DNA from: Physcomitrium patens | Lineage: Eukaryota; Streptophyta; Bryopsida; Funariales; Funariaceae | NCBI RefSeq assembly: GCF_000002425.4 | Contig: NC_037263.1 | Location: 13,960,607 to 14,024,606, forward strand | DNA length: 64,000 nucleotides | Direction of reading: 5' to 3' | Shown: positions 12,952 to 58,327 of the stretch, one piece after another | How the letters are laid out: each line of letters opens with the position of its first letter | Position numbering within the stretch: position 1 is the first letter of the stretch | Notes under the pieces: model-generated | Database searches by the model: none | The model's input: the letters and a program-made list of their open reading frames with translations, nothing else | What the model was told of the DNA's origin: nothing | Program-made: the position numbers and the translations under genes

Positions 12952-13557
12952 GATGCCAGGATTCTCTCACCTCCCTCCGCCCTCTTTCTCTCCCTAAATA
13001 CAACCCCCACTACTCAAAAGCAACCTCCAATCCCTAATCCTCTTCACGACATCTCAGCTTCAAACCACACCTCACCCTAAAATTCCACCCTGCGATCATT
13101 CCAGCCAGCGCAAAGTCCACTTAACACTGCATACGAAGTGTATGACGGCACTGTGTTGGTTCCTTCCCGATGACGACGCTCCGATTCGCGGCAATGTCGC
13201 GGGCGATGAAGGCTGCGAAGTGGGAATGACGCAGCAGCAAAACGGGCGGATGCGGAGAGGGAAGAAGCGCCGCGGGTGTAGGACCCCAGAGGAGCTTGAG
13301 GAAGGAGAGTCTGTCTCCGTCCTCGCGTTCCGTTACCGTGATTCACACACGCAAGTCGGAGCGTTCTCTTGAATGGAACATTGGAACGTCATTGAGTTCC
13401 CATGAATGACATGTTCTCCTCCTTGTGAACGCCCAAAGTTGTTCTTGGCCAAGTTCAATAAGCCTCGCTTCCCTTTTGATGCAACTTCCCCTAATGGCCA
13501 CGTATATTGCTCATTAATCTCCTCTTGATTTTGTCAAAGAAATAAGTTAATAAAAAA

Positions 13558-16200: not shown

Positions 16201-20150
<3,950 letters not shown>

Positions 20151-20770: not shown

Positions 20771-21905
20771 TTACTACTATTTAATTACATACATATAATC
20801 ATATGTTTAAATCGTCTACAGCTAATGTATGTATCAATGGATATATCTCAAAAAAAATTAAAACCAAAAGAAAACAGAAAAAAAAAAAAAACAAAAAAAA
20901 ACAAGGATAAAAAATATTATATGGTGAGTATTTTTTGTAAAAAAATAATCACAAACGTCATGTAATGTTCAATTGATATCTTTTACCCTTATTCAAATAA
21001 TAGAATGTTAATTTACTTCACTTTAAAGGTTAGAGCTCCTACTGTGACAGAATAGAACAAAATGAGAATCTTTTCAAATGGTATAGATTTTATTGTAAAA
21101 GAGATTTTCATATTTAATTACTAAAACCAAAGTCGGAGTTTGTTTTAAAAAGAAAAAAATTGAAGAAAAAAAATTAAATTCCAGAATACAAGACTTTTAG
21201 TTATGTTACAAAATAGATATTTTTGGTTGATTGGTTGGTTTTATCTTTATTCTTTTATGTATGACGATTTTACAAATTGTAAAAACTCATAAATTTTATC
21301 CTTAGAATTTACCTAACAAAATTAGTATTTTTAATTAAGAGTTATTTGCTTTATTTTTGCAAGTCAAAACCAGGTGCATTATTTTTGTACTTTCGAACTT
21401 GTAATGAAAACTTTAGATATATTCCAAATAAAGCTTTTTCTAAAGGACTATTCGAACTCCAAATAAATAAATATATAAATATATAAATGATAAAAATACT
21501 CAAATCGCTTCTCCGTCCATATTACTTCAAATTTAAAATTATAGCCAAGAATTCAATTACTCTAAAGAAAATATACTGAACAATTCGACCAATCAAAAAC
21601 AATACTAAATATCATAAAATATATAAATTAAAACCCTTGACATACGGGAGGCAACGTAGAATAGTGAGTCAAAGTAGTAGAATAGTGAGTTCAAGAATTC
21701 CGAGCCATGCCGAGGCTTTGGTCTGGTAAGGGCCGAGGCCAAGTTTTTAGGTCAGGGATTAGGTTAGGGAGTCGTCTCTCTGTTTCCGCCAGGGCATGGC
21801 CATGGCTGAGTCTCCCTCTTTGCTTTCGCATGTGCCAGCTCCCGCGAGTAGGCTCTGGCGCAAGGCCCCCGACACCACCATCACCACCACACTGCGGTAC
21901 TCACC
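20151..21905. other. Bidirectional intergenic region between kinase and eIF3f
   Basis: 20151-20420 is GC-rich and likely the kinase promoter/5' UTR. 20640-21650 is AT-rich with long A tracts (20741-20767) and no coding signal. From about 21650 GC rises into the eIF3f leader. TATAAAT lies near 21622, about 280 bp before the eIF3f ATG, a possible but unproved promoter element. The leader has upstream ATGs at 21707 and 21796. Confidence 0.5.
20739..20767 (+). repeat. Poly-A tract
   Basis: About 27 consecutive A residues after a GA-rich lead, in otherwise AT-rich DNA. It could be a retroposed 3' tail, but no target duplication was recognised. Confidence 0.9.
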
Positions 21906-24417
21906 ATGGCCATGGGACGGACTGTTCTCCACATGCCTTCGGGCCACACCGGCGTGGTCGCTAAGCTCCACCCGACTGTGCTCTTCAACATCTGCGACTC
22001 CTTCATCCGCCGCAACGATCAACAGGAGCGTGTCATCGGCACCTTGCTTGGCTCCATCTCCGCGGACGGAACCGTCGAGATTCGAAATTCGTACGCCGTG
22101 CCGCACAGTGAGCAAGCCGATCAGGTGTGTTGCTCGTTTGACGTCTGATAGTCGGTGATCTATATGACAGCTTCATGCATTGTAGGTTTTTTTCGGGGTA
22201 GCTTAGATCTGTTGTCTCGTGTGTGGAAAGTTGAAGTTTGGAAGGATAGGTTGAGTTTGAATTCGTCGAAGATTTTAGCAGTAAGTTCAACTTGTTTCAG
22301 ATGGAACTGTATACTTTTGTGTGTTGGAGGAATTGTTGCTGCAGTTTTTGTTTTCTTTGATTACGTCAGAGCGCAATGTGCATCACGTAATGCGACTTGT
22401 TAGTAGAATTCAGGAGGTGATTTAGATTTGTACCGGGTTCACTCATCTGCCCGTGGAGGAAGGTCATGCCTACCGTCAGACGATTTGTCCAGTTTGGTCT
22501 TGCGTAGATATTTGCCGTATTGGATCTTCTGTAATGTAGACTGGTTGTGGTTTAATTGCCAGGAGAGAGGTTGCGTGATTTGCTCTAGTGATTGATTGGG
22601 AATCAAGAGTATTATGAACCATCGGGACTCGAGTTCGTGAATTGGTCGTGTGGTATGTTTTTGGGACATGGATAGGTTATTGTGCACAGTTCCAATGGAT
22701 CTGGGTAATTGGAAAACAGCTTAATGAGTTACTTCAATTCTAATATAATTTTGCCATCATTCTCGTTATTGTTATTTTGAATTCTTCACTGAATTTCGTT
22801 GTGTGGCGATGCTAAAGGTAGCAGTAGATATTGACTACAACCGAACCATGTACGAGTTGCACCAGCGCGTGAATCCCAAAGAGGTGGTTGTTGGATGGTA
22901 AGTACTCGACGTTTGCGCACCTCCTGAGGAACATGGGCATCGACGTGGTCGCATACGCATGTCAGATACCATTACACATTCTTCTCGTGCATGAATCATT
23001 TAGCTCCTGGCATCAGCAGTAGTTTTTAATTAGCCAAGCTGGCTCTTTACCTCGCACATGCAGCGTCGTCTCCAGACTCCGCAATGTACTGACATTTTCC
23101 GGCAACTTGCAGGTACTCGACAGGTTCTAGTTTGAGCCCTAGTGACACACTTATTCATGACTTCTACGGTAGAGAAGTGGCCAATCCTGTGCTGCTCATT
23201 GTGGATACTGCTTTTGCGGAGGAGAAGGTCAACATCAAGGTTTTTGTATCCACTCTTCTTACTCTTGGAGAACGCCAGCTGGCTGCACAATTCCACGAAG
23301 TTCAGTTGGATTTGCGACTTGTCGAAGCTGAGAGAATAGGATGTACGCAATTTTGTTAACCCTTGCTGGCTTTCAGAGGAGTTGGGCGTTCATACATCTT
23401 CAAGTCGTTGTGTGGGTACTAGTGCGTGTATTGCTAATGACATGGCCTACTAGGTGTACGATTTTCTGGATCATGAGATAGTGGATTAGTGGTTTTTTGA
23501 GTATGGTCCATTAGGTGTGAGTACGCTAATGTTGCGGATGCGTATTAATTGGTGTAGGATGTTGTTAGTTCCAAAAGCTTTGTCAGCAATGCATGGGAAA
23601 CTACTCAAGAGATCTTATTTTTCAGATTCATTTACTTAATGTGTTTCCTGGCAGTTGACGTTTTGAAGAAGACCATGGTGGAGAAGTTGCCGAATGATCT
23701 CGAGGGGTTGGAAGCAACTATTGAGAGGCTGCAAGAAATGATTGATAGAGTTTTCAGATATGTGGATGATGTTCTGGTAGACTGTTTCCCATCGAATGAT
23801 TTTTGTAACTGCTTGTTATTTGGCAAATTGTAACAGATATGGCCGTTGAATATATTTCTTTTTCAAGATAACTTTGCTTTGTAGTTTTTTTAATTGCTGA
23901 CGATCGCTTCGAAGGTACTTACATTCTTGTTTTGCTGTGGATGCAGGAAGGGCAAATTGAGCCCGATAACTCTATAGGCAGGTTCCTTGCTGACACGATG
24001 TCAGCCGTGCCACGAATCTCGTCTGATGCTTTCGACAAGCTCTTCAACGATAGTGTCCAGGTAGGCCCTCACTTCTGGTTTAAAGCTCGAATTTAGCATA
24101 ACTTTTTCTCATCGACCATCTGAAGTTTGGGTCTATTGATTCTGTTCTGTTTTTACTTTGTCCCTCAATAGAAAGATGATTTTTCATTTTCCTTACCAAT
24201 ACCGAGCAAAACAAGTAGCTTGGGTCATGCAGCCATGAAACCTTTTATTTTGCACAAACGTCACATTTATTATGGTTATTATGCTGACCTCTTTTCTATC
24301 ATATGAATTTTGTTCCATTCTACGCAGGATCTTTTGTTGGTGTTGTACCTGGCGAACCTTACGAAAACTCAGCTCACGTTAGCTGAGAAACTTAACACAG
24401 CTGCCCAAATATTGTAG
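21906..24417 (+). CDS. eIF3f: Translation initiation factor eIF3 subunit f
   Basis: eIF3f is an MPN-domain subunit of the eIF3 complex, which binds the 40S ribosome and organises initiation in the cytoplasm. Six exons close perfectly in phase: 21906-22124, 22818-22897, 23113-23342, 23655-23776, 23947-24060, 24328-24417, encoding 284 residues (family about 290). The MPN domain starts HPTVLFNICDSFIRR and continues ERVIGTLLGS, VVVGWYSTG (split by intron 2), then IHDFYGREVANPVLLIVDT. The JAMM metal ligands are absent (STGSSLSPSD where a protease has HxH), as expected for this non-catalytic MPN subunit. The C-terminal half has AERIGFDVLKKTM and a helical bundle ending LTLAEKLNTAAQIL. Start: first ATG of MAMGRTVLHMPSG in a CACCATGG context. 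Upstream ATGs in the leader could reduce initiation if transcribed. Confidence 0.97.
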
Positions 24418-35688: not shown

Positions 35689-36451
35689 ATGGCGGCATAC
35701 TCGTTGCGGAATGTGACGAGGTTGGTAGCTACGGTGGCGGTGATGCTCATGGCGGTGGCCCATGTCGCTCATGGGAAGGCAGAAGTGCCGCCCATCCTGC
35801 CCAAGGCGTACCAAGGAAGCGGGAATGTGCTGCAAGCTCTGTTGAATCAGTCCTGGCCGGCAGCACAAGGTGTGTCCTCCACATTAACGTTCTTCGCCCC
35901 CCAGAGCTCGGCTATCAAGGTTCATTCCGCCATTTCTTCGTCGTATCCCTATCCTTCCAGTTTTCTTAGAAAGCTCAAATGGGACGGAACGGCTTCTATT
36001 CATCATAGAAGCCACACGACGGATTGGATTCCTATTCGCTTTTGGTGTTTTTTTTTTTTTTTTTTTTTTTCGTTTGTTTGTTAGTTTGTTTGTGAGTCAG
36101 GATGTAGATATTGTATGTGATTTGACCTAGACTCCACCTTGGAACTGTGCCTATGATGGACAGAAATACCCATGTTTGTTCTCAGATTCGGATGCAGTGA
36201 GCAAATCTGTGGCGACCAGCGTGTTGCAATACCACATTATTGCAGGGAGAACATTTTCGTCCCAGCAGATTAAGAACCTCGCCCAGAAAGCCGATTATAT
36301 GGTCACAATCGCCTTCAATGGCAAGAAGATGAACTTTACCATCGGTGGCAACAAACTCAATGGCTACTCCAGTATCAATGATCCGGACATTGGCAGCAAG
36401 GAATACCAAGCCATCCATGGTATCAAAACGGTCCTCCTGCCCCTAGTCTGA
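35689..36451 (+). CDS. Short secreted fasciclin (FAS1) domain protein
   Basis: FAS1 proteins are extracellular adhesion-type proteins of wall and apoplast. Exon 1 is 35689-35919, exon 2 is 36164-36451; the AG at 36162-36163 keeps frame (the AG at 36185 would not), giving about 172 residues. An N-terminal signal peptide is visible (LVATVAVMLMAVAHVAHG). The FAS1 H1 box is TLTFFAPQSSAIK, the second conserved box LQYHIIAGRTF, and then a hydrophobic end with IKTVLLPLV. It has one FAS1 domain only, with no proline-rich arabinogalactan modules and no hydrophobic GPI tail, so it is smaller than typical FLAs. The start at 35689 is preferred because the signal peptide follows at once; an in-frame ATG at 35578 would add 37 residues and bury it. 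The intron has a 20-nt T tract. Confidence 0.82.
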
Positions 36452-37594: not shown

Positions 37595-40500
37595 TCAGTG
37601 AAAAGTGTGAATGGGGGGAGGTTTCTCTTTCCAAGGATTATGTACCGACGTATGTTCATACGTAGACCTGACGCTGTGCATCTTGTTATGGAGATGGCCT
37701 CGTAGGTCATGTAACTCCTTCATTTGGCTAGGCATGTTGGTGAACCTTGATATTCCCGTATTCGTCCACATGTCCTTTGGTGGATATGTCTGCACCAAAT
37801 CAGTACAACATAGTGTCCACTGTGAAATGTAGAGCGCAGAACAAGGACTTACTGTAATGTAGACAAAATTCACCACAAGCTTCACAATAATTTGATCGGA
37901 TCTAGATTCACAACAAAAGTTCCCAACCTGGGTGATATTCTCGCGTCGGAAATGGCTAACATCGGTCTGAGTAAAATGGGTCCTCAATTTTTGCCACTCC
38001 AGTTTTCTGCGTTATGATCGCGATTTCAATCAGAATGTTGCATAAGAGGTACAAGCCTGAGGATCTAAATGAGCTGCAGAAATTCTGGAGGTTGATAAGC
38101 ATGTCGGCGTGGTAGGTGACCACACCGATCAGCGACATATTCATTGACAAGGAATTGAAGAGCTAGTGGGTAAGAAAAAAAAATAAAAAATAAAAAATAG
38201 AAATGGTAATTGGTGATCATCAATATCAACTCGATGAAATATTGATCATAGGTTCCAGAAAGGAAGTAGCAGATGTATCAAGAATACCTTTGTTCAAGCT
38301 CTTGTCTATCCCATCGACACATCCATGGATGAACCTCTGTTTGTATCCCAAAGTCTTTAGGCAAGCTCTCGTTCACGAGCTCAGTCTCCAAAATCTGCTC
38401 CAATCCATGTTTTAGTTTCTCATGTACTATCAAAAGATCAAACCGACAGAATATGAGATTTTTTCAACCTAAAAATCTAACATGACTATGGCGGATGCAC
38501 GAAACTGTGAACAAACTAAGCTTAAATGATGAAATCTCAGTCTGAGATCATCGAGACAATCCGCCCAAATAAAGTGAAGGCGTGGGTGAAGGCATTGGAT
38601 TAATTCGACATGAACCAGTATACGACTTGTATTTCTTGGTGGTCAGGTTGTGCAAAGAAAGGATGAAAAACCTTCGGGATGGAGAGGTAATAAAATGCAG
38701 GCGAGTATTCCAGGTTCATCAAATGAACGTGTTGCGGCATTTCTAACACCAGCTTTGCCACATCTGCTATGTACTTGCAGGGAGCCTTCAAGAACCTGCT
38801 CTCCACGGTAGAAAATGTTAGAAACCGCCAGGTCCACCACAAACCTAGGGGAACTTCAAAAAATAAGGAAATTTTGAAATGAAGGTGAAGTGCATGAATC
38901 AATTGTTAATAACCAAGTGGGATACTACAATTCTGGAAAGCATGCTTACAGAAACTACGGGTCCAGCTCTAAACTTCATTGCCAATTTTCAAATTCAGGA
39001 CGTTCAGTACCTTTTTTGTGAGTCTTCATCTCCGAAGCAATACAATTTCTTGTCCACAGTTTGTACAAGGCCCATGTCAGGATCTCCTTTCCAGAGAATT
39101 CCATTTGTTCGAGAAAAACAGACAGGACAGAAGCCGTTATACTCAATGTGAGGTTGCTTCTCCATTACAGCGCGTACCTCATTCGGTGGAATAAATTGTG
39201 CTTTGCAGTCATCTTCAGTCACTTCGTACCTGAAATCCTCCCAATCGGACTTGGTCATGTAGTAAATGTCGACAATCAGTTTCTTATTAATCTGTGCTGC
39301 CCGACGACGTAGAGCGTTACATCGACTACACAATGAACATCTATATGTTGTTGAATAATATCATACTTGATAGACAAGACATACTCTTCATTCTTGCACT
39401 ACTGATAAAGAATTAAAAGTTCATGATAATCCCAGAATTGAAAAATCAGCAACGCATATGAGCCGTAAATCCTACACATTACCAAGAACTTTTCCATGAC
39501 AGTCTACGGAGGTCACCCAAATATCTGCACATGATGCATGAATTTGAATCACAGATCTGATAGAAGTGTGGTAGGAAAAAATTATGTGAAAGAATCTCAT
39601 CGTGAACGAACCTATTACAATCCACCTGAGGAGGTTCGCAGGCGAGAAAAAGGAAATTCTTCCGCTTGATATCAAGTCTTTTCTCTGTATGTGGAGACTC
39701 TCTATAGAAAGGATTCTGAGCCATTTTCAAAAGCGGTGTGGCTGCTTTGATTCGTGCTTGCAAGTGTCGAAACTCCTGAGCGATGGCAATATGAATGGCT
39801 CCAATTGCTCGCAATTCAGGAAATACCTGCACACGTCACCTCATAATTTTGTCATTAACTCATCGTGAACAACGAGTGTAGTACTAGCCATATTTAGATA
39901 CCTATACTGCATGATAATATGCTTATACAGAAAATAACAGGGTTGTGCAGCATACCATGTCACTTGGAATGACCTCGTAGCTTCCTATGATCTCCGAAAG
40001 TCTATCCAAATGTCCATGACTCTTCTCTAGAAGGTTTAAAACAGCCTCTTGCTTTTCACAAAGATATTCACGAACAGGCTCCAGGTATAGGGCAACCTGC
40101 CATCATAGAGCTTTGAACACATCTCATGGAAATTGACGAAGAGATGGACATTATCATTTAAACAGACCTCCTAATATGCTCAACAACTCTTTCGACGTTT
40201 GGATGTTAGAATATATACGTTGGCATTAAGACTCAAGATGTCATAATAAGCACTGACTTGAAATTGGTACGAAATTTCATCTCGCAAGCGCTTGATAAAA
40301 ATGTGATTAACTCCCATGTCTTGATAATACTTCATGACACTAGAACTATATGCACGGATTTTGGTATTGACTATTTCAAAAGTGTCTTGAATTGCGCATC
40401 CAAGCTCTACGGCGTCATGCTCGTACACCTCATTTGGGAGCTGAAAACCTTGACCTCCTTTTCCTTCATACCTGAGAACTCCAAGACTTAACCAGATCAG

Positions 40501-43417
40501 TATCTGAGAGGCTGAAATCATGTTTAAAAATGACCAGAAAGTCAACATACATTGTTCATAACACAAGAAGAGTATCGTCAATCTTCGCATTAACTTTTGA
40601 TAATAGAAGATGGATAATGATATTTCGGTATCCCCTTGGATATTTTGGTACCCTCCTCCAAACCCCTGGGTTGCTCCTCTTGAGAACACCATTGGGAACG
40701 AGTTCCCTAATTCCCAAGTTCCCAGGTTGAATTCCAATCCACCTAGTTGAGAAGAGACTTGAATAGCCTTGGGAGGTACCAAAATATGCAAGAGGAGTAC
40801 TGAAATATCCATGCCGTAGAAGATTCACTACTATTATAAATGTCACGTCTAAGTGGATTCAAAACACCGCTAGATTCAAAGCCATCAAAATTTGAAGACA
40901 TGCACGTCTTTTTCCAGCAGTCCTAATATCGTAAGCCCTCAAATGACTCACGTGGGTTATTTTAGATAAATCCGCTGAATGTCTACTACTTGAATACTAA
41001 AATAGTAAATATCTAAGAAATAGAGAGGTCTAACTTGTTGAAAACCCTAACGCCCGTCACCACTTCAGCCAGCTCTTGCAACTGCAACATTTTTTCCTCT
41101 TTTGGAAGATCCATCCAATACAAAAATCCCTTCCTTGGAAAAACACTCTCAAGAGCTGCTTCTAACTCTAAATTCATCCTTTTCTCACCTCCCTGTATTG
41201 CAGCGGCAAACGGGTCTACAAATTTATTGTAAACCATAAGATAGGCAATCACCCGCTCCCGCAGAACCTCTGCAGTTTCATAATATTTTCGAATATCGAT
41301 CACCTGATAAGGTCAACATCGCAAAATCAGAAAGGAGCCAATTTAGCTACAAATCCAATGGCAACATTCATGAACTACCATCTAATTGCGCATCGCAAAA
41401 TCAGAAAGGGGCCAATTTAGCTACAAATCCAATGGCAACATGCATGAACTACCATCTAATTGCGCATCGCAAAATCAGAAAGGGGCCAATTTAGCTACAA
41501 ATCCAATGGCAACATTCATGAACTACCATCTAATTGCGCATCGCAAAATCAGAAAGGAGCCAATTTAGCTACAAATCCAATGGCAACATTCATGAACTAC
41601 CATCTAATTGCGCATCGCAAAATCAGAAAGGGGCCAATTTAGCTACAAATCCAATGGGAACATTCATGAACTACCATCTAATTGCGCATCACAAAATCAG
41701 AAAGGGGCCAATTTAGCTACAAATCCAATGGCAACATTCATGAACTACCATCTAATTGCGCATCGCAAAATCAGAAAGGGGCCAATTTAGCTACAAATCC
41801 AATGGCAACATTCATGTACTACCATCTAATTGCGCATCGCAAAATCAGAAAGGAGCCAATTTAGCTACAAATCCAATGGCAACATTCATGAACTACCATC
41901 TAATTGCGCATCGCAAAATCAGAAAGGAGCCAATTTAGCTACAAATCCAATGGCAACATTCATGAACTACCATCTAATTGCGATAACGGCTCCCTTGCTG
42001 CTCATGCAAGTAGCTTCGAGTTTGCCATGTACTGAAATGAGTGAAAACAAAGAATACAAATTCCCAAAGCAATTCAGCATGATTCAGTGATCCTTTAGTC
42101 AATGCTACATCCAAATAAACCTACCCCTTCAAAGTTGTCAAGAATTAGACTCACATGCGTCTGTAATTGGCACTAGGTTTAGCAGTTACTCGTGAAAGGC
42201 CAACTAATTAAAGTTGAATTAAAAAATAGACTTTGACAATTCCTTGTAAAGGTTACTTACCTTAGTATCCAAGATGACTTGCTCAGTCGAGCTTAGCTCG
42301 GCATTTCTTAAACTATTTTCTTGGTCTAATTCCTTCATAGCAAAATGAAACGCTGCTTGCGTTGTAACCTGTATGTCGATAGAGAAGTCACAATAGTGTT
42401 GTTAAAGACCTACTAGTCTCCTTCTCCCACAGAAATTGTCCGTCAACAGAATGGTTCTCACTAGTTGAGGATGGATTTACGTGCAAATCGTGGAAGCTGC
42501 TGGACATTGAAATAGTGATCAACAACATTGGTGTCTCTTATTATGGTAAAAAAAGGTGAAACAAACAACATACATGTCCGCAGAAATGGTGTCGATGTTA
42601 ATCCTCATAATAAGGATAGTTACTGTATTGTGAAATTACTAGACCTGAAGCTGAACTATCTCTTGAGCTGGGCAGTCTGTGAGTGTCATATGCTTCGCAG
42701 CAAGCTCCACCATGGCCTCGTATTCTTGCTCGCTCATCTCTGAAAAATGTCTGGTGGAGCACAAAAAAAATTGTTTTAAATAGACAAGTAAATTTTTGAA
42801 AAGGAAAAGTTGATGCTTCGACGCCCCCCGAAAATACAATTGCCTTCAATACAAGCAGTAAATAGGTCATACAATAAATTGAGCGAAATCTACGCGACAT
42901 TGCATTTACTACTGCCTCCATTACGGGATAGAGAGAGATCAGATAAACAGAACTGAGACTCCCACCATTGCCTGCCAATTGAGAATGATAGAAAAACTTA
43001 CTTATCAGGCCACTGCATAACTGCACACCGCAACTGAAAACAAGCCATGACTTCCTGATACTCGCGGATCGGGTCTGTCGAAGTATACCTAGGGTGGTCT
43101 CGGAAACATCGGAGCGTATCCCTAACCATCTGTTTCAACGGTCTGGGATCTTTGTATGACAATACCTTGACCACTTGGTGTTGGACATTGATGATCGGTG
43201 GAGTAGCAGGTCTGATTACCGGTTCTTTTCGATAAAGAGGAAAAGGATCATCATATGGATCCTTCCAAGGTTTCTTCTCCTTTTCCGGTGGCTCTCCGTC
43301 TGTGGCCCTTGTCAACGTCAAATACAAATTCAGCTCTGGATCTCGCCAATCTCTCACATCAAACTTCCGCACGAAACCTTCAACTCTCTGCTCTGGCATC
43401 ACTTCCTCGATCTGCAT
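37595..43417 (-). CDS. CFAP206: CFAP206/FAP206, radial-spoke-base protein of motile flagella
   Basis: CFAP206 sits at the base of radial spoke 2 in motile 9+2 axonemes. Exons: 43417-43002, about 42739-42645, 42368-42261, 41303-41035, 40471-40258, 40096-39956, 39826-39612, 39340-39011, 38795-38672, 38394-38288, 38006-37928, 37789-37595, about 760 residues. Family blocks: LELEAALESVFPRKGF with LAEVVTGVRVFNK, then GKGGQGFQLP; a cysteine cluster CNRCSLCSRCNALRRRAAQ spanning exons 7/8; YNGFCPVCFSRTNGILWKGD; LKAPCKYIADVAKLV; a late FTQTDVSHFRRENITQ; and YPPKDMWTNTGISRFTN near the end. From exon 3 on, every junction closes in phase with canonical sites. The join between exon 1 and exon 2 does not, so the first 139 residues (unlike the animal N-terminus) are less secure. 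Expected to be expressed in spermatogenous tissue. Confidence 0.92.
41317..41982. repeat. Nine-copy 74-bp minisatellite in CFAP206 intron 3
   Basis: Units start CATCGCAAAATCAGAAAG at 41317, 41391, 41465, 41539, 41613, 41687, 41761, 41835 and 41909: exactly nine times 74 bp, with only a few substitutions between units (for example GGAGCC/GGGGCC and CATGAAC/CATGTAC). On the sense strand of the gene the array lies immediately before exon 4; its last edge is 14 bp from the exon start. The near-identical ORFs seen here are by-products of the repetition (74 is not a multiple of 3). Confidence 0.98.
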
Positions 43418-45745: not shown

Positions 45746-46574
45746 AAATATTTATCTTTTTGGAGAGAAGATGAGAAGAAAGTTTAATTTTGGGTATGAT
45801 TGTGAATTAATCCGTGTGTTGTTCATCTGAAGATATAAAGTAGGACCTTGTTTTGACATTTTAGGACTATAAATTTGACTTTTTTACTTTTTTAGTATGA
45901 AATTAATTGATAATTAATATTACTTGAAGTAATAACCATCTATAATTTTTCAAATGACTATTTATAATAATTTTTTTAAATAGTTTTAGGAGCATAGTGT
46001 TGAATTCTATTTTCTTTGTATATTATTTATAAATAATTGTGAAGAAAAAGTTATCCTTGTAGAACATGTGCGGACATTATATCCTATTGACTTGTAGTTG
46101 CTGTAAAAGTACCTCCTTGTTCTTCCTTCTATAGACTCAAACTGTGATGCAGATCATTCTGTTGATGTTTTTACATACATGTTACTTTTGCTTCTATTCC
46201 TTGCTCCTTGTAATCTTTCCTTTGGATAATTTACTTGTGGATTTTTCAATTGCATAGTTATTATTGAAAGGTCAATCAATCTTTTACATAGATTCTTTTA
46301 TTGGTGAAGAAGTAAAACATCAAAAATTCAACTAATAGCAACATAAAGTGAAAATAAACTATTAGAAGAGAATGGAAGTGGAAGTGCTATTGGAATAAAT
46401 TGGTCAAGAATATTTATTAAGTAGAATTGATGATAAAAATCACTAATTGACAAAACATCTTCTCATCTTAATAAAATTCTTATTTGATGCTTATATGATA
46501 TACTTAATGTATTTATTATTATTTTTATATAAAAAATTATATTTATCAATTTATACACTTGTTTATTTATGTTA

Positions 46575-46690
46575 TTCAAGAACAAGATTAATAGCATATA
46601 AAGACACATGTTTCAATATTAATAGCACGTAATGAATAAGATTAATAGCATGTAAAGAACAAGATTAATAGCATGTAAAGATACACAATA
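46575..46690 (+). repeat. ~23-bp tandem units
   Basis: Four units of the form AAGATTAATAGCATGTAAAG (the first and second copies degenerate: GCATATAAAG, GCACGTAATG). AT-rich and non-coding. Confidence 0.75.
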
Positions 46691-47599
46691 TTAGTGAAGA
46701 AACCAATGTTGTGCTGATAAACAATATGGATTTTTTTTAAACTTTCTTGAGCCTTCAATTCTCTTGTTGTATTCTCAAAAAAGTGAAAGAGAGAAATTTG
46801 AGCTTTTTTAAGGTCTTTGGTGGAAAATTTTAAGTAAGATTTTAATATTAAATATTGATTTTCTACTCATGATGTAGTAACACTTTTAAGATGAAGTAGA
46901 TTATTTATCTAAGCTTTAGCAAATCTCTTCTTGTATAGTATCTAAGTATTCTTTAAATACTCAATAGTTGCATGAATAACAATAGGAATATATTTGTTGC
47001 AAAGATTAGTCCATTCTAAATAAAAAAAAGCTCTATAAAACATGTACTAATCACAATGGTCCAATCTACAAGGAATAAAGGCCATCCTAACTCTACTTTA
47101 TTTGAAAAGTATTTTTTAGAATTTGCTAATATATTTTTTGTATATACCAAATACAAAGTGATATATTTGAAGTGAGAAGTATTAATTTAATTTATTAATT
47201 CTAAATTCCTATCAATACCTATGCAAATTTTTCCATACATCTTTTAAAGTTGGATTAAAGCCCAACAAAAAAATGATTTTGTTTCCTCTTAGAGAAAAAA
47301 AATATCAATGATAAATGAAGTATTAAAACTTATCATCCTCACAACATGTAATTTTGGCATTCTAAATCTATTTATTTTGTATGTGCAATCTATGACAATG
47401 GAAAAATAGTACTTTTTTACAAGTTGAACATGATAAAAATATGCAAAAAATAGAGAAGTAACTTTATCCTCTTGATAAAAAAAATAAAATAAAATGGTAA
47501 TTAACTCTTTATAAAGTTTTTATGAGACATATAATAGCTGATTGTCTTACAAGTACGACGAGAAGTAATTTTTGTTGCTCATTGTTAATAATTTGAACA

Positions 47600-48076
47600 A
47601 TGGCTTTGCTATTAGTATCAGTCTTATATAAGGCAATAATAACATTTTTTGGTAGGATGCTTGCAATTAGCAATTGTGAATATAAGGCAATAATAACATT
47701 TTTTGGTAGGATGCTTGCAATTAGCAATTGTGAATATAAGGCAATAATAACATTTTTTGGTAGGATGCTTGCAATTAGCAATTGTGAATATAAGGCAATA
47801 ATAACATTTTTTGGTAGGATGATTGCAATTAGCAATTGTGAAGTTAATTCTTTTTTGGGTAGTTATAAACAACAAGCAAATAGATGGTTTAAAAGAAAAA
47901 AAAATAACTCTATGGTTATAAAGAGCAGTTTGAATAATCAAATGCCATTAAATACTATTATGTCAAACGACTTGTATTATCTTATTTGCAAGTATGACAA
48001 TTTTGATCACAATAAACTTCTCCTTTGTCACACTTGTAATCAATGCAATCTTTATCAAAGAGTTGATTTCATATGA
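47600..48076 (+). other. Open frame created around a 54-bp x 4 array
   Basis: An uninterrupted frame of 158 codons whose N-terminal half is four copies of the 18-residue unit YKAIITFFGRMLAISNCE. The start codon is uncertain. The C-terminal part (RWFKRKKNNSMV then YYLICKYDNF and CHTCNQCN) has no recognised motif. The reverse strand is also open across the array, so openness alone is not evidence of coding. It sits in transposon-rich DNA with no visible promoter. I would treat it as non-coding unless transcripts show otherwise. Confidence 0.4.
47627..47842 (+). repeat. 54-bp tandem repeat, four copies
   Basis: Units start TATAAGGCAATAATAACA at 47627, 47681, 47735 and 47789. Copies are identical except for one change in the last (GGATGCTTG to GGATGATTG). 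Because 54 is a multiple of 3, each unit keeps frame. The near identity points to recent amplification. Confidence 0.98.
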
Positions 48077-48454
48077 AATAGCCTTGATTGTATGTAAATT
48101 CATCAATACTACATTTTATTTCTTCTGTATTTTTAAAATATCCCTATAGTGGTACACATATATATTGCTCATTTTATATTATAAAATACAAAAAAAATTA
48201 TAAAATATATAATTTTTTTCCTCTATCTATTATACATAATCTAAAAAAGAATATATATTAGAATAAAATAAAAAAATAGTACACACATAATTATAAGGTA
48301 ATTAATAGAAGAACAATAGAAAGATGTTATTACTAGTAGTTAGAAACTATTGAAAATTGTTGGAAACTATATCTAAAATGATGATTCTATTATTCAAATA
48401 TAGATTATGGTCTTAATAGTGAAGAATATTTATACTATCTATGTACAAAATTGT

Positions 48455-48560
48455 GATGATGGGTGGATCACTTTAGTAAAAATTTGATTCACTTTATCAT
48501 TTTCTTATATATATATATGTTAAATAGATCTATTTTTTTACAAAATTAATCCATCCTATT
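48455..48560. repeat. Hairpin (inverted repeat) around a TA run
   Basis: The left arm GGTGGATCACTTTAGTAAAA and the right arm TTTTTACAAAATTAATCCATC are imperfect reverse complements, with TATATATATAT between them. Related terminal sequence occurs at 55845-55900 and 57265-57335 (GGATCAATTTAG, TTTAGTAAAAAATTGGATC). This looks like the termini of two element copies meeting head to head, or one MITE-like hairpin. Confidence 0.55.
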
Positions 48561-48795
48561 ATAACTATCTTTAAAAAAATGGATTATCTCTAATAACCAT
48601 CATTAACATCATGGCTCTCATCTCTACCTCCCTCATTTCTAATCCTTCCTACTTTTGTTTACAACTCTTATCTTGATTGTCTTCCTCTTTTTTTCAACTG
48701 CCATCCTTCTATTTTCAACTTTCATCTTCATCCCTTCTATTTTCAATCTCTATTCTTAATCTTTTCTTGCCATCATTGTTATTAATCCAATCAAG
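48530..48795 (-). repeat. Left arm of a long inverted repeat (partner 55600-55890)
   Basis: Collinear with the reverse complement of 55600-55890: TATTATAACTAT, ATCTCTAA, ACATCATGGCTCTCAT (partner: GCATCATGGCTTTCAT), TTTTCAAC and TTTTCAATC in the same order. Strongly diverged. The two arms flank the Ty3 element. Confidence 0.65.
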
Positions 48796-48889
48796 TAAAA
48801 TACATCTATTCTTCTTCTTTAGAATAAGCACTTCTATAAAGATCACTTAATACAAGAAGTTTTTTGCATGAGCTTAGATTTATACTTTC

Positions 48890-49264
48890 ATATAGATGTG
48901 TCAAATATATATTTATTTATTTCTATAATTATTTAAATAATATGAATAGATAAAAGTACATAAAAATTGATTAAATTGATAATATCTTATAGAAAAGCTT
49001 CTTAGAAGCTTTACAAATATGATTTCAACTTTACATGTATCTACAAGTGATTGGTAGGTTGAATTCTTAGTCAATAAATTAGCCACACATACTGGTAGCT
49101 TGTAGTACAAGCTAATCATATAACATACATTTAAAAACATTGCCTTGTAAGTCAAGAGACATGTCTTGTAAATTGAATACATGTTAGAGGTCCTATAGAA
49201 TATTAACATGTAGCTTTTAATTAGATAGTATATATGAAATCAAGGATTAAAAGTTTATTTATCC

Positions 49265-49296
<32 letters not shown>

Positions 49297-49465
49297 TTTT
49301 TTGCTTCTAATATAGTTTGAAGAGTCTTTAGATTTCTAGTCTTTAAGAATAATCATTTCAGTTTTTTTTTTAATATACATATTTTTTTGTTATCATTTTT
49401 TTTAATCTTTCTTTGATACTTATCTCACTTATTTATAAATCTTCTTTGAATTCTTGTCCTTAACA
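48890..49465 (+). repeat. 5' LTR of the Ty3 element
   Basis: Collinear with 54565-55119, sharing AATTAGATAGTATATA, GATACTTATCTCACTTATTTAT and the end TTCTTGTCCTTRACA. The (ATT)n run at 49265-49296 is absent from the 3' LTR. The left edge is approximate. Confidence 0.85.
49265..49296 (+). repeat. (ATT)n microsatellite inside the 5' LTR
   Basis: Ten or so ATT units that the matching position of the 3' LTR does not carry, so the tract grew after insertion. Confidence 0.9.
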
Positions 49466-51659
49466 AATTGACAAGAATACACTTAAAATATTAGAATTTT
49501 ATCTTTTTTTGATTAAGAGTAAGTATATATATATATATATATACAACATAAATATATTTGAAGTTGTGGATTACTCACTTTTAAATTGATATTGTTCTTA
49601 AAATTTCTTTTATTTTCCAATTTTATTTTTTACTTATCTTGAGAGATATTAGACATTTTTTTTCTATTATGTAATTATAGCAAATTTTATTGAAATAAAA
49701 AATACAGTAGTATAAATGCAAGAGCAATTAAGAAAGTTAATGCTTGATATGCATCAACTCAACTTACCACCACATGGAGTAATAAGATAAATAAAGAGTG
49801 AAGATATAGAGATGATTGGAGCTACTTCACCATCTACATCAAATCATATTAATTTTTCTATACTAGAATATTATTTAAGTATTAGAGAATCAAAAATTGG
49901 CTTGCTTAAGAAGTTTGATGGCACAAGATTAAAGTTTTACGGATTCATTAATCAAGTATAACTAACAATTGAACTTCAATTCCAAAGTTATCTAACTTTA
50001 GAATTACAAGTCAAATTTATTAAAATATTACTTTTAAATTTTGCATTATCATAGTTTTTATCTTTTCTTAAATGATGTGATCCAATATGAATTATTTAAA
50101 GGATTTTTTGAAGGAGGTTGATCCATATATGAAAAACATGATATAATTTGTTTTGCAACAAATAAGATCTATATTTTGTAATAATACAATTGATTTGTAA
50201 TATTATGTGCTTTATAATTTTGATAACTTATCTTTGATATCAAGTAAGATGATATTATACTCATTGGTTAATTTTTTTATGAATTATAATATTAAAAAAA
50301 AAATTGATGCTCAATTTACTTGATTGTCAAATATTAAGTCAAGTAATTGATTTTATTGTAAAGTGTGACAATTGGATATTTGAATTTTGATTTGATAGTT
50401 GTACAAGTCGGCCTCAATATTATTATAATTCAATAGCAATACCAATATCTTCTCAATACATACATTCAAAATTAAAAGATATGCAAATTGATGTGATATG
50501 TTTTAAATTTCTTAATAAGCAAGAAAAGACTTATCATTGTCAAGAAGAATTGTGCTTATATTTTGAAGAACCTAAGCATATTGCTTAACATTGTTGAAAG
50601 AAGCAACACAACTACAAAATAAAGAGTATGATTTTTAAAATATAACAATATTTCAAAAAATAAATTGGTCCAATTACAATAGGGACAGTGTGGCTAAAAC
50701 CTTATATAATACTTAATAAATGTTTTATTCTTTCTTTAAAATCCTCTCCTTATTTTATAATAGATATTAATTTATGACCTAAATATCACAAAGCCTCTAC
50801 CATGCTAGATTCAAGAGTCTTAATTTATTTTTTTGGTGAAGAGTTTGTTAAAAGATATAGCATATCTTTAATGAAGAAATCTAATTTTTTTTAAATAGAA
50901 ATCATAGATAATTGTCCATTGTCTTTTGGAAATATTACTCAAGAAAATTCTTCTTATAGAAGTAATAATTAATGGTTATAGTAGCTTTATAATATTTAAT
51001 ACATTAGATTTTTTTTAATCTAATTATTTTAGATTTATCATGGTTATAAAGTATAATTCTTAAATAGATTTGATTTTTCATAGTCTTATCTTTTTTGAGA
51101 ATATAACTAAGAGTTTTTTAATCAAGTAGAAGGTCATAAGTTTAGTCCAACCAATTTTGTATTTGTATTTATAAGAGCTTTCTTGCATTCTACAAAAGAA
51201 GGATCATCTTATGTTATTTATGCTACACTATTTTTTAATAGTAAAAATATTTCAAATAGCATTTCAAGTCAATATCAAGATTTTCAAGATATTTTTGAGA
51301 AAAAAAAAATACAAATAATCTTTTGAAAGAACTTCTTTATGATTTTTCAATTGACCTTCAACAAAGAGCTCAACTATCATTTGAATTAATTTATGGTTTA
51401 TTATAAAATGAATTGACTAGACTCAAAGAATATATTGAAAAAAACCAAGCTAAAAATTTCATACATCACTTTAAATCTCCAACATGAGTTCCAATCTTAT
51501 TTGTGAAGAAAAAAAAAGAAATGATTGCAAATGTATGTCAATTATTAAAGACTCAAGATTACCATCAAAAATAGATATCTTCTATCTTTGATATCTGAAC
51601 TTCTTGATCAATTGAATCAAGCTAAGATCTATATAAAAATATATCTATAAAGAATATAT

Positions 51660-52425
51660 AATCTAATATATATCAAAAAAGGAGATGAATAGAAGATTAT
51701 ATTTTAAATAAAGTATGGATATTTTGAATACAATGTCATGTCTTTTGGATTCACAAATGTACTAGCTGTTTTTTAACATTTAATGAATGATATTTTTTGA
51801 AAGTTTTTAGATAATTTTATTATTTATTATTTAAATGATATCTATATCTATTCTAAAAACATAAAAGAATATGAATTTCATGTTTATTATGCCTTATAAA
51901 AATTAAGAGATGTTAAATTCTATCCCAAGTTTAAAATTTTAAAAATTACATTTTATACTACTTAAGTTGGTTTTTTAGAATACATCATTTTAAATAGTGG
52001 ACTCATGATAGATCCTAAAAACATTCAAACCATTATGGATTAGAAGATCTCAAAAATGATAAGAGATGTTGAATATTTTTTGAGATTTATAAATTACTAT
52101 CAAATCTTTATCAAGAACTTCTTTCAAAGAGTAGCTTCTACTAATATATTTGACTTGTAAAAACAAACTTAAATGGAATCAAGAAACAAAAATAAAACTT
52201 GAAGCTTCAAAAATAATCTTTGTTTTTAAACCAATTTTATATTGCACTGATTTTTTTAAGCCATTCTTTATAGAAAAAGATCCATTAGAATTTGCTTTGA
52301 GTGTTATATTATCACAAATGGAAATAAATGATAAACTTCACTTATTAGATTTTTATTTAAAAAAATTTACAATAGTAAAGATTAACTACAAGATTCACAA
52401 TAAAAAAAACTTTTTACAATTTTAG
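51660..52425 (+). pseudogene. Ty3 reverse transcriptase/RNase H remnant
   Basis: Read through stops: EYNVMSFGFTNV, HLMNDIF, DNFIIYYLNDIYIYSKN (about 51808-51855), VGFLEYIILNSGLMIDPKNI (about 51970-52030), then EKDPLEFALSVILSQ of RNase H (about 52276-52320). The active-site box should be YLDD; the first Asp codon reads AAT (Asn), so the enzyme would be dead even without stop codons. Confidence 0.85.
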
Positions 52426-53079
52426 ATTTTTTTTTAAAATAATGTCATTTTATAAAAGATGCTTTTATTCTAATAATTATATATAAATTATAAGAAACTT
52501 GAATATACTTATATCAACACATATTTTGAATCATTGTCAAGCTCATTGGAGCATATTTTTGTCAAGATTCAAATTTATGATTATTTATTGGCTAAGAAAA
52601 CAAGGTTTATTAAATGTAATTTTTAGACAATCTTATCTTATGCCAAAAGAAAAAAAAATACGACTTTTGATCAATAATAGATAATTTTCTTAAAGTCAAA
52701 GAAATCTCATCTTTGAACAATGAAATCAATATTAATTTTTGATTAAACTTTTCTTAAGTAAGTTCAATTAAATAAATCCCTTGATCCTTTCATTTGTGAT
52801 ATTAAAGAAAATTCTTCAAAATCTTATGATGATTCTAAGTTTAAATTTAAGAATAAACTACTATATTTCAAGGCTTGCTTTTATGTTCCAAAAGGTGAAG
52901 CATAATTATATGCTTTTGAAGCTTGTCACAACTTTCTAATAATCGGATATTTTGAATATAACAAGACTTCAAAACTAATATTTAGAGATTTTTGGTGGCT
53001 TCAAATGTGGAAGGCAATTAAAGATTTTGTACAATCATATGACATTTATTCAAAATCAAAAATTTCTTGCCATCAATCT

Positions 53080-53560
53080 TTCGGACTTCTTTAGCCATTA
53101 CTTATTTTTAAACATCCATAGTCTTTTGTTTCTATGGATTTTATTACAAATCTTTTAATTTCACGTTCTTATGATTTTATGTTTGTAATAGTAGATTATC
53201 TCACTACGATGACACATTTTGTATCATATACAAAATCTATTATATGTAAAAAAATAGATAAGTTTTTCCTTGATAATATCTATTATTATTATGGATTGTC
53301 TAAGGATATTATATTAGATAGGAAGTTTCAATTTGTATGAAGATTTTGAAAGACTTTTTTCAAGATTCTAAAGGTAGACATATAAATATCTTTGATATTC
53401 CATCTTCAAATTAATGGCCAAAAAGAACAAATAAATCAAGTTTTGGAGCAGTATTTAAAATATATTATCAACTATCAACAAGATGATTGCATAACTTTTT
53501 TGGATTTTAGCAAAGTTTTCTTATTATAATATAACATATTCTTCTATTCAACAAATATCT
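53080..53560 (+). pseudogene. Ty3 integrase remnant
   Basis: Matches the integrase core: SMDFITNLLISRSYDFMFVI, LTTMTHF, YYGLSKDIILDRKFQF, NGQKEQINQVLEQYLKYII. The catalytic positions D (MDFI), D (LDRK) and E (QKEQIN) can be placed. The segment 53134-53340 is free of stops, but the flanks are broken by a frameshift and stop near 53340. Confidence 0.85.
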
Positions 53561-54564
53561 CTTTTTACTAAATATGGTTATCATCCACAACTTAATATTT
53601 TTTATTTATCAAAAATTAATAATCTTAAAGCATAAAATTTGATGAATTATTTATCTAAGCTATATACAAAAATGAAGGTACAACTAAAAGAAGATCAAGA
53701 ATGACAAAAGATCAACATGGATGCTTATTAGAAGAAAAAACCTCAATTTCACATAAGTGATAAAATAAAGGTTATTTTGTTATAATATCAAGACTATTTA
53801 TACTTGTGACAAGTTGGATCATTATAGATTTGAACCATTTCTTATATGAAAACAAGTCAATCCAATAGCTTATTGATTAAAATTAGAATATTTTTTTCAT
53901 TGATATAAATATAATATTAGTGAATATACAAGAGAGCCAGTAAGGAATCTTACAAATGTAATAGAGAAGGTCAAAACTTTTTATCAATGACATCCATCAA
54001 AATCAAGATGATGAATCAAAAAAATCTTTTCTATAAAAAAAAGATGTTCAATGAAGATTGCATTCCATCTTCTATCTTTTATTACAATTTTTCTATTATT
54101 AGTAATAATAAGATGAAAAAACAATAGCCAACAGATTCAATTTAAGAACTATCATTTGTCAACTTATTAAACAAGATATTGTAATTATCACAACCTTCAA
54201 GAAAATATAATATAAATGAAGACCTTTAAGAAAAATATGTTTTTCATTGAATAGATAGTAAGATAAAATGGATTTTGTATCACAACCTTACAAGAGATTC
54301 TTGATGTTTGGTAATTTTATTAAAAGTAGGAATAATTCTTAATGATATTATAAATATTTTATTTGAAAGAAGTTATAAAGACCTCAATAATGTTCAAATA
54401 ATAGGATGATCTTCTTACTTGAGAATGAGACGTTATCAATGGCTAAAAAGACCTATTAACTATCTTTAAAAGAAAAAAAAACATCAAAATATGTAACAAA
54501 TATAATTTTTTGCATCTTGGACTTCATCAACAATAGATCACCACTTCTCATAGAACTTGTCCCT

Positions 54565-55119
54565 AAAAGATATATTATCATAGACATATATATTTGTCTT
54601 TATAATTATCTAAATAATATAAATAAATAGAAGTAAATAAAAATAGTTTAATTTGATAATATCTTATAGAATTTTTTTTAAAGCTTTATAGATGCAAATT
54701 CATCTTTATATGTGTCTATGAGTGATTCATAGATTGAATATTTGACTAATAAGTTAGCCATATATCACAAGTATTGGTAGCTCATGGTATAAGCTAACTA
54801 TGTGGTATACATAAAGAAAACTTGCCTTAGAAGTCAAGACATATGTCTTACAAATTGAACACATATTCAAAGTCTTATAGAATATCAACATGTAGCTTTT
54901 AATTAGATAGTATATATAGAAACAAGAATTAAGTATTTTTTATTCTTGTCAATTCTTTTCTTGTTTCTAGTCTAGTTTCAAGAATCTTTAGATTTCTAAT
55001 CTTTGATAATAGCCATTCCAATTTCTTCTTGAATATACATACTTTTTTGTTATCATTTTTTCTTCATTGATACTTATCTCACTTATTTATGTATCTTCTT
55101 TGAGTTCTTGTCCTTGACA
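54565..55119 (+). repeat. 3' LTR of the Ty3 element
   Basis: Partner of 48890-49465, ending TTCTTGTCCTTGACA at 55119 where similarity stops. The divergence between the two LTRs is large, so insertion is old. Confidence 0.85.
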
Positions 55120-55599
55120 TGATGTTTAGAATGTCATTGGTGTTACTGAGATAAAATTAGGAAAGTCTCTTATATTTGGCCTTCCAATACTATAACAATT
55201 TTTAGATGATCATGAAGAGTTTCAAAAGAAATCAAATTTTGATAAGGCTAACAAGAAACAATCCGGAGGTCCTTTATATGCTCTCATTGTTATTATTATA
55301 AGAGAACTTATATTGCATGTGCACACTTATCAAAAGCCATGCTTTACAATTAGAATACTTTTTTAGATGTTTATTATTTGTGAGGGTTCTTAGAGCAAAT
55401 GTTTTTGAAATAAAAGTTGACAATGGTTCTAGTATGTTTGTTGAATTGGATTTTTGAATTACTACCAATATGGGCTGGAAACTTTATTGTATTTTTTTAA
55501 TTTGAAAGTTCATTAATTCCAAAAATGATAAAATTTTAAAATCAAAATGCATTTATAAATTAGAATAAATATTGGCATTAGTTCTAATAAATAGATCAC

Positions 55600-55890
55600 T
55601 TAGTACTTTTAAGTGGAAACATAAAAGGGTTGAGATGTAAGTTGAAAACAAAAGAAGCAAAGATTGAAAATAGATGAGGTCAAGATGAGAGTTGAAAACA
55701 TAAGAAATAGGGGTTAGAAATAAGGGGAGTTAAGATGAGAGCTAAAAACAAAGGAAGCAAGGGCTAAAAACAAAGAAAGTAGAAATGAAAGCCATGATGC
55801 TAATAATAGTTTTTAGAGATGACTTATTTTTTTAATAATAGTTATAATAAGATGGATCAATTTAATAAAACAATGATCTATTTAATATTT
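55600..55890 (+). repeat. Right arm of the long inverted repeat, with purine-rich ~60-bp units
   Basis: Reverse complement of 48530-48795 (see there). The internal part repeats a purine-rich unit of about 60 bp: AGTTGAAAACAAAAGAAGC, then AAGATGAGAGTTGAAAAC, then AAGATGAGAGCTAAAAAC. It ends with GATGGATCAATTTAATAAAA, the same terminal motif seen in the hairpin. Confidence 0.65.
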
Positions 55891-56284
55891 TCTTTTATTT
55901 TTATATATATTTTCATATTCTTTTTAATTTATTATTAAAAAAAGTTTCGAATGACATGTAATGGATGGAGATATAAATGCAATAGCAAAAATTATAGTGG
56001 CATTAACAATGCCTTATTATAAGTATATCAAAAACTTTTGTTTTAAACACTAATCTAAAGTTTTAGCTCTTAAGATATTTTTTCATGCTAAAACTACTAT
56101 TTCGATGTCTATTAATTTATTTTTATTTTTTAAAATATTTCTTTGTAATAGCAATTTTTAGTAAAGTTAATAAATTTTTGATTACATATTATATATTATT
56201 TATGATTAAATAAACAAATAACTATCTGAAATTATATAAATATTCTTATTTATATTATTCTACAACATGTTATGGTCATTGTAA

Positions 56285-56450
56285 TCTTATATATATACTA
56301 GAAAAATCCATGTTGTTATGCATTGCAATCTCTAGCACAACCATCCATTTTCTTATTAATCTATGCTTCTTTGTTTTTATATTTCCTCATTCATCTACAT
56401 TTCTTTATTTATTGGTTTCTATATTTACTAAGTTTACTAAATTTCTTTCT
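56285..56450 (+). repeat. Second copy of the Helitron-like terminus (see 14050)
   Basis: ATATATACTAGAAAAATCC followed by ATGTTGTTATGCATTGCAATC, CCATCCATTTTCTTATT and a T/C-rich stretch, collinear with 14050-14225. A candidate partner end lies at 57265-57335 about 1 kb away. Confidence 0.5.
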
Positions 56451-57264
56451 TCATAGCTAATTAAAAGGTTTTTTTATCTTTTGTATTATACCTAAGTTGG
56501 TATTATACTTAATTTGGTCTATAAGCAATAGTTATAAGGATTTTTCTTTAAATAAGTTTAGAATTTAGTATAAAACATAGTCAATTAACTAAAGTTGAGT
56601 ATAGATGTGCACAAAATAGGTGAACTATGGTAAAAGAAGAATTGTAAAGAATATTACTATCAAATTCATATTGTATTTTCCAACTATATTTTCTAACTAT
56701 TGTAAATAAATTATTCTATAAAAGTAAAATAAAATAAAATAAATAACACTTAAAAATAATATGAAATAGTATGGTAATAGAATATATATTCAAAGAATAT
56801 GTTGAAAGGATTGCCAAAATATTTTTACATAAATAATTTATGAAATTTTTATACAAATTTTGTATGGATGAATAGATTTTTTTCCATCAAGATATAAGTA
56901 TATATATAATTACTAAATTAATCTATTTTTTTACTAAATTGACTAATTTTTCTCCAATTCCATCTATTTTTTAATAAAATACATGTGAAGTACTTGTTGC
57001 CTTCCTTAAATATAATACTAATTTTTGCAAATGGATACATGAAATTGAAATTGTTTGATTATTTGGATCAAAGAAGAGTAGAAGTTAGAATCTTGGCAAT
57101 ATAATTTTTTGAGGAAGTTGTGCAGAGATTCCTAAGGATTATATGGTGAGTTTGTTGTGAAGGAGTGTAAGTTCATTGTTACTTCTAGTAGCAAGCAACT
57201 AGAAAGGAAGGTTGGTCTTGTGCCAATAGACATAACATTGTAGCAAGTCCAAAGTATAAGTAAC

Positions 57265-57335
57265 CATTTTTGGTAGGGAGAGTCAATTTAGTAAAAAATT
57301 GGATCAATTTAGCAATTTTCTATATATATGTAGAT
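57265..57335 (+). repeat. Candidate element terminus (GGATCAATTTAG motif)
   Basis: GAGTCAATTTAGTAAAAAAT then GGATCAATTTAGCAATTTTC and CTATATATATG. The same wording occurs in the hairpin at 48455 and at 55845, so it is a recurrent element end. Confidence 0.5.
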
Positions 57336-57340
57336 ATTTG

Positions 57341-57344
<4 letters not shown>

Positions 57345-57377
<33 letters not shown>
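57345..57377. repeat. (TA)n microsatellite
   Basis: A TA run right after the terminus motif. Confidence 0.9.
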
Positions 57378-57386
<9 letters not shown>

Positions 57387-58327
57387 CTTGTAAATATTAT
57401 ATATATTTTAAAAACTGGTTATAATCTTTAAATTACTAAAAATAAATATTATAAGTATTAATTTTAATGTTCTTATTTTATTTTTATTTTAAATATATAA
57501 TTTATAAAAAATAATATTATATTTTTATAAATACCAATAAAATTTATAATTTTATATATACCTATTATATATATATGTATATTTTAAGTTGATCATAAAA
57601 GGGGTTCACCTTAAATATCATTAAATAATATGTAATTGTGACAACTTACTATTATCATATTGCTTATTAAATCAAATATTAATTTCTTTATTAAATTTTT
57701 AATCTAGTATGTTAAATATACTATATACATTTTTAATTTTATCTTTTGCACGTACACTAATTTGCTTACATTAAATTATAACCAAAAACTAGCTTTGTCT
57801 AAAAAATAACATATAAAATTTATATATATGTGTATATATTTATAACCTTCAGTGTTGGCCATAAATTTGTATGGACTTTCACTTGATGAGGATTGGATGA
57901 ACTTTACTTTAAATTGCATAATTTCAAATGATTTAAAACCCCCAAAAAAGTTTCCTACGAACAACGATCTTCTGTCGCGCAATCTCTAGAGGGAACGAGG
58001 GTCGGACGCGGGTCGGGGGCGGCACCCGAGTCCAGTCGGAGACCCTTCCAAACCCTAATTTCAGGACGGGGGGGGGGGGTTGTGCAGAGATGGCACTTGG
58101 ACGGAGCAATTGTCACTTGGTGGTGATGGCTCTCGACTGATGTCCGCTTGCTCGTTGCTTCTGATTCTGTAGGATTGCGACAACCCTTAGGAGCCTCGGG
58201 TTGCGTGTTAAGCGTAGAACTGGAGCTGAGGATGATAACAGATTTTCGAAGGGTGGCGTTGTGAAGGGAGAGAGCACGGGATTGGTAGTGTTTTAGTATC
58301 GCAGCAGTGGCGGAGGAGCCGATTGCC

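What the first reader, a model, noticed from the sequence alone, without database searches (positions are those of the whole stretch)
37595..43417. CFAP206 gene in a plant genome window: marker of motile sperm
The sequence encodes collinear CFAP206 blocks across at least ten exons. CFAP206 belongs to the radial-spoke base of motile axonemes and is lost in flowering plants. The gene has intact frames and canonical splice sites, so it is under selection. It constrains the organism to a lineage with flagellated sperm (bryophyte, lycophyte, fern, cycad or Ginkgo, or a streptophyte alga).
Basis: partly seen in the sequence, partly recalled or inferred. Interest (0 to 1): 0.7.

Follow-up and report, generated by a model that had tools for sequence, protein, structure and literature searches.

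The report
Ordinary moss-type sperm flagellum gene CFAP206
The stretch holds one intact gene for CFAP206, a known part of swimming-sperm tails, in a land-plant genome that looks like a moss; this is expected rather than surprising.

Summary
The joined protein matches Pfam FAP206 (PF12018) at 6.4e-27 and two solved CFAP206 chains at 1.3e-11 and 7.2e-7. A neighbour, COP9 subunit 1, is plant-type. The window lies in a 470,438,890-base genome of 101 contigs. No second CFAP206 copy was seen there, and a radial-spoke-head gene and the axonemal dynein light chain p28 are present, as expected with flagellated sperm. Genome size, contig lengths and intron lengths suggest a moss, possibly Physcomitrium patens; that is inferred. 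Best explanation: an orthologous adapter at the base of radial spoke 2. Slightly unusual are an N-terminal extension, estimated from a weak alignment at about 100 residues, and a 9 x 74-bp minisatellite in intron 3. Loss in flowering plants, selection and expression were not tested. The finding is ordinary.

The parts
43002..43417 (-). Exon 1: start codon at 43417; residues 1-138 and two bases of the next codon, with an N-terminal extension (taken here as residues 1-92)
   Evidence: coding-like codon use and open frame of the extension
42645..42750 (-). Exon 2
42261..42368 (-). Exon 3
41304..42260 (-). Intron 3 (957 bases), with the minisatellite and an undecided 36-base in-phase candidate exon at 42160-42125
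41317..41982 (.). Minisatellite, nine copies of a 74-bp unit, 0-1 differences per copy to copy 3, in intron 3; 13 intron bases lie between it and exon 4
   Evidence: no 14-mer of the unit elsewhere in the window
41035..41303 (-). Exon 4
   Evidence: best PDB match of this reading frame is CFAP206 9e5c_4z, weak on its own, E 0.097
40258..40471 (-). Exon 5, start of the FAP206 domain
39956..40096 (-). Exon 6
39626..39826 (-). Exon 7 (3' end not settled)
39011..39291 (-). Exon 8 (5' end not settled), the FAP206 block that matches on its own
   Evidence: PF12018 1.9e-9 on the open frame alone; one search finds the same place in the whole genome at 1.2e-6
38672..38795 (-). Exon 9
38288..38394 (-). 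Exon 10
37928..38006 (-). Exon 11
   Evidence: in the C-terminal match to 9e5c_4z
37595..37789 (-). Exon 12 with stop codon
   Evidence: in the C-terminal match to 9e5c_4z

Best explanation
This is the protein-coding CFAP206 (FAP206) gene, seen once in its genome, of a land plant with flagellated sperm, most likely a moss. Its product most likely sits at the foot of radial spoke 2 on the doublet microtubule of the spermatozoid flagellum, where it anchors that spoke and is needed for the inner-arm dynein c to dock. Gene, frame, domain and two other axoneme genes in the genome are shown. Location and function in this plant are inferred from Tetrahymena and mammals.
For: FAP206 domain at 6.4e-27 over residues 340-608. 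Matches to CFAP206 chains 9e5c_4z and 9y6s_8q at 1.3e-11 and 7.2e-7, mainly in the C-terminal block outside that domain. 746-residue frame over 12 exons, with G+C by codon position 0.53/0.33/0.46, and 40 and 51 stops in the other two sense frames. No second copy seen: all 12 rows of the whole-genome search with the joined protein lie in this gene (only the best 10 candidates were scored, and five rows run into introns and so count stops), and the one family match is this gene. The same genome has a radial-spoke-head gene, four exon rows on C17, best 3.5e-33, and p28, four exon rows on C25, best 3.5e-12. Plant host: a COP9 subunit 1 exon scores 167.1 and 166.4 bits with two chains (4lct recalled as Arabidopsis) against 115.6 bits or less with the other five listed. 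Function, from passages: Tetrahymena lacking CFAP206 loses the whole radial spoke 2 in 83% of subtomograms, and dynein c (PMC6678824; PMC12399478); CFAP206 mutation in patients and Cfap206 loss in mice give sperm-tail defects (PMC11506864).
Against: None against identity. Not tested: expression, protein location, phenotype, selection by dN/dS. The searches for radial spoke 3 protein, CFAP91 and CFAP61 in this genome did not complete. One exon junction is unsettled. That moss axonemes lack outer arms but keep inner arms is a passage of the preprint PMC12637542 citing Hyams and Campbell 1985; against a simple form of it, an ODAD1-like coiled-coil exon (named for an outer-arm docking protein) passes its cut-off in this genome.
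Confidence: 0.95

Rival explanations
1. A decaying or non-expressed CFAP206 relic in a plant that no longer makes flagellated sperm.
For: Expression was not tested. A near-uniform minisatellite ends 13 intron bases from the exon 4 acceptor and could disturb splicing.
Against: The 746-residue model needs no stop or frameshift to be read past, though I chose its boundaries; the other sense frames hold 40 and 51 stops. Radial-spoke-head and p28 genes are also present.
Confidence: 0.03
2. CFAP206 starts further in than 43417, so the N-terminal extension is not part of the protein.
For: No Pfam family other than FAP206 on the whole protein, no NCBIfam family and only one chance-level PDB match, E 0.56, for residues 1-174. 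A weak stretch (independent E 0.096) puts query residue 256 at residue 154 of chain 9e5c_4z.
Against: The first 92 codons have the codon use of the rest of the gene (0.386 bits per codon in frame, negative in the five other frames). Of 5,000 shuffles of the extension 11 were open and 0 reached that score; of 2,018 overlapping upstream windows 10 were open and 0 reached it, but those are much richer in A+T and so a weak control. The frame runs without a break into the conserved part.
Confidence: 0.1

Closest known systems
CFAP206 / FAP206 (Pfam PF12018), radial spoke 2 base adapter
   Same: FAP206 domain and C-terminal conserved block
   Different: Longer (746 residues) than chains 9e5c_4z (640) and 9y6s_8q (706). 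About 100 extra N-terminal residues against 9e5c_4z, from a weak stretch with independent E 0.096; the corresponding stretch with 9y6s_8q is not significant, 0.9 bits
Flagellar gene set of Physcomitrium patens and other non-seed plants
   Same: GO terms for flagellar motility are overrepresented in P. patens and have no Arabidopsis genes in a table of PMC3729371 (passages); mean intron 278 bases there, 326 here
   Different: CFAP206 is not named in the passages read

Membership tests
CFAP206 / FAP206 | FAP206 domain PF12018 above the curated cut-off | tested here: met
   95 bits against 33, E 6.4e-27
CFAP206 / FAP206 | Similarity to solved CFAP206 chains outside the Pfam domain | tested here: met
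   Residues 647-726 with 9e5c_4z (independent E 6.4e-7) and 646-728 with 9y6s_8q (9.1e-6); residues 256-315 with 9e5c_4z only weakly, 0.096. Residues 257-610 sent alone gave CFAP206 first but only at 0.13
CFAP206 / FAP206 | Intact coding gene | tested here: met
   12 exons, one open frame of 746 codons; boundaries chosen by me, one junction unsettled
CFAP206 / FAP206 | Organism with radial-spoke and axonemal dynein genes | tested here: met
   PF04712 and PF10211 in the same genome; PF06098, PF14738 and PF16092 searches unanswered
CFAP206 / FAP206 | Location at the base of radial spoke 2 | not testable with these tools
   Needs tagging or cryo-electron tomography of spermatozoids
Marker of motile sperm in plants | Absent from plants without flagellated sperm | not tested
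   No seed-plant genome was searched here; PMC9023351 passages speak of flagellar genes in general

The most novel reading that the evidence does not exclude
The N-terminal extension is a plant-specific (or moss-specific) addition that docks radial spoke 2 or dynein c differently in axonemes described as lacking outer arms.
Probability: 0.06. Interest if true: 0.4.

Novelty: new member of a known kind. Interest (0 to 1): 0.15.

Why it matters
It is a clean plant member of a known axonemal protein family, seen once in its genome, and a useful knock-out target in a moss, whose sperm are cited as having inner arms only. It does not change any view of the family or of plant sperm.

Tried and rejected
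A frameshift seemed to lie near 40100, between two open frames. An acceptor before 40096 joins exon 5 to exon 6 in phase and removes it. The script's top-ranked, longer exon 11 was dropped for a shorter one that agrees with the C-terminal block of CFAP206. Rfam at gathering thresholds and a tRNA scan of the window gave nothing. A scan of viral contigs with exon 8 gave no relative. The N-terminal region gave no NCBIfam family and one chance-level PDB match, E 0.56. Paper searches pairing FAP206 or CFAP206 with plant terms showed me no paper on the plant gene: (Marchantia) found 0 papers, searches found 4 and 3, none on plants by title; searches matched 4,610 and 8,908 papers on their other terms, of which only 15 and 3 were listed, all without FAP206. 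A paper on the plant gene may still exist.

The possible extra exon at 42160-42125 was left out of the model, because nothing decides for or against it. The ODAD1-like exon was looked at only as far as one frame listing and one Pfam scan.

Full report
What is there. The minus strand from 43417 to 37595 carries a complete multi-exon gene. The model has 12 exons, 11 GT-AG introns and 746 codons plus a stop. Exon boundaries came from a splice-site scoring script and from reading the sequence. G+C is 0.44 in exons and 0.37-0.40 in introns, and differs by codon position (0.53/0.33/0.46); the other two sense frames of the joined sequence hold 40 and 51 stops. A random sequence of the local composition would be expected to hold about 47 stops in 746 codons, but since I chose the boundaries to stay open this number overstates the case. 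The stronger evidence is similarity.

Identity. Of six single reading frames sent without any splicing, one, containing exon 8, matches Pfam FAP206 at 1.9e-9. The joined protein matches it at 6.4e-27 over residues 340-608. Against the Protein Data Bank sequences two chains match at E up to 1, both named CFAP206 (1.3e-11 and 7.2e-7), mainly through the C-terminal block, residues 646-728, outside the Pfam domain. Residues 257-610 alone give only weak PDB matches, CFAP206 first at 0.13, so by sequence the middle of the protein is known through the Pfam model rather than through a solved chain.

Unsettled details. The exon 7/8 junction has three alternatives with FAP206 scores of 97.2, 93.5 and 97.1 bits. 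Intron 3 holds a 36-base in-phase stretch between an AG and a GT (42160-42125) that could be a small exon. The N-terminus seems about 100 residues longer than in chain 9e5c_4z, but this rests on a stretch with an independent E of 0.096; the like stretch with 9y6s_8q, 0.9 bits, is not significant. The first 92 codons score 0.386 bits per codon for the codon use of the rest of the gene and negative in the five other frames. Of 5,000 shuffles of the extension 11 were open and none reached that score; of 2,018 overlapping windows upstream 10 were open and none reached it, though that region is much richer in A+T. So the extension is very likely coding. No match explains it.

Minisatellite. Intron 3 holds nine copies of a 74-bp unit (41317-41982), each with 0 or 1 differences from the third copy, ending 13 intron bases before exon 4. 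No 14-mer of it occurs elsewhere in the window. The whole-genome search for it did not complete.

Setting. Pfam matches above the curated cut-off name pieces of neighbours: SCAI, a DRY_EERY splicing regulator, a JAB-domain protein (read by me as eIF3f), a fasciclin protein and an RPN7-family protein; a protein-kinase match, 29.4 bits, is just under its cut-off of 31.7. The RPN7 piece is COP9 subunit 1: it fits chains 4lct and 9is6 at 167.1 and 166.4 bits, against 115.6 or less for the five other chains listed; that 4lct is Arabidopsis is recalled. The window is therefore plant.

Whole genome. The window lies on contig C11 of a 470,438,890-base genome of 101 contigs. FAP206 gives one match, this gene. 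The 12 rows of a search with the joined protein all lie in this gene, so no paralogue was seen among the candidates scored. A radial-spoke-head gene (PF04712; four rows on C17) and the axonemal dynein light chain p28 family (PF10211; four rows on C25) are present. These families rang in 0 of the tool's 14 control genomes. An ODAD1-like coiled-coil exon passes its cut-off on C4 (30.7 bits; 33.3 bits). Radial spoke 3 protein, CFAP91 and CFAP61 could not be searched. The four contigs seen are 11-22 Mb long; with the genome size and introns of mean 326 and median 276 bases (P. patens mean 278, median 213) this fits a moss such as Physcomitrium patens.

How it works. [quoted passage not shown] its knock-out removes the whole spoke in 83% of subtomograms (PMC12399478). 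Its mutation is found with sperm-tail defects in patients, and its loss bends and coils flagella in mice (PMC11506864). The moss P. patens is cited as keeping inner arms without outer arms (PMC12637542). The inference is that the moss protein does the same in spermatozoids.

The gene, plant setting and flagellated-sperm lineage hold. That the gene is lost in flowering plants is plausible but not tested: PMC9023351 passages say that the cycad keeps most flagellar genes, Ginkgo fewer (without four radial-spoke proteins), and Gnetum, conifers and angiosperms lost many, without naming CFAP206.

Verdict. An ordinary, expected orthologue. Interest is low.

Noticed in passing
41317-41982: Nine near-identical copies of a 74-bp unit in intron 3 of CFAP206, ending 13 bases before the exon 4 acceptor; their uniformity suggests a recent array.
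   Followed up: partly
L018 1426-1734 (genome contig C4), minus strand: A reading frame matching ODAD1_CC (33.3 bits, cut-off 27), a family named for an outer-dynein-arm docking protein, in a genome that looks like a moss; the moss P. patens is cited as lacking outer arms.
   Followed up: partly
46001-58000: Very A+T-rich stretch (21-26% G+C) with a retroelement trace: RT_RNaseH_2 match at 52135-52422, 7.1e-9.
   Followed up: no
47626-47842: Four near-identical copies of a 54-bp unit.
   Followed up: no
7370-7768, 11251-12966, 18631-18948, 21852-22145, 36131-36448, 58804-59247: Pieces of neighbour genes by Pfam: SCAI, DRY_EERY splicing regulator, a protein kinase (just under cut-off), a JAB-domain protein read as eIF3f, fasciclin, and COP9 subunit 1.
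   Followed up: partly
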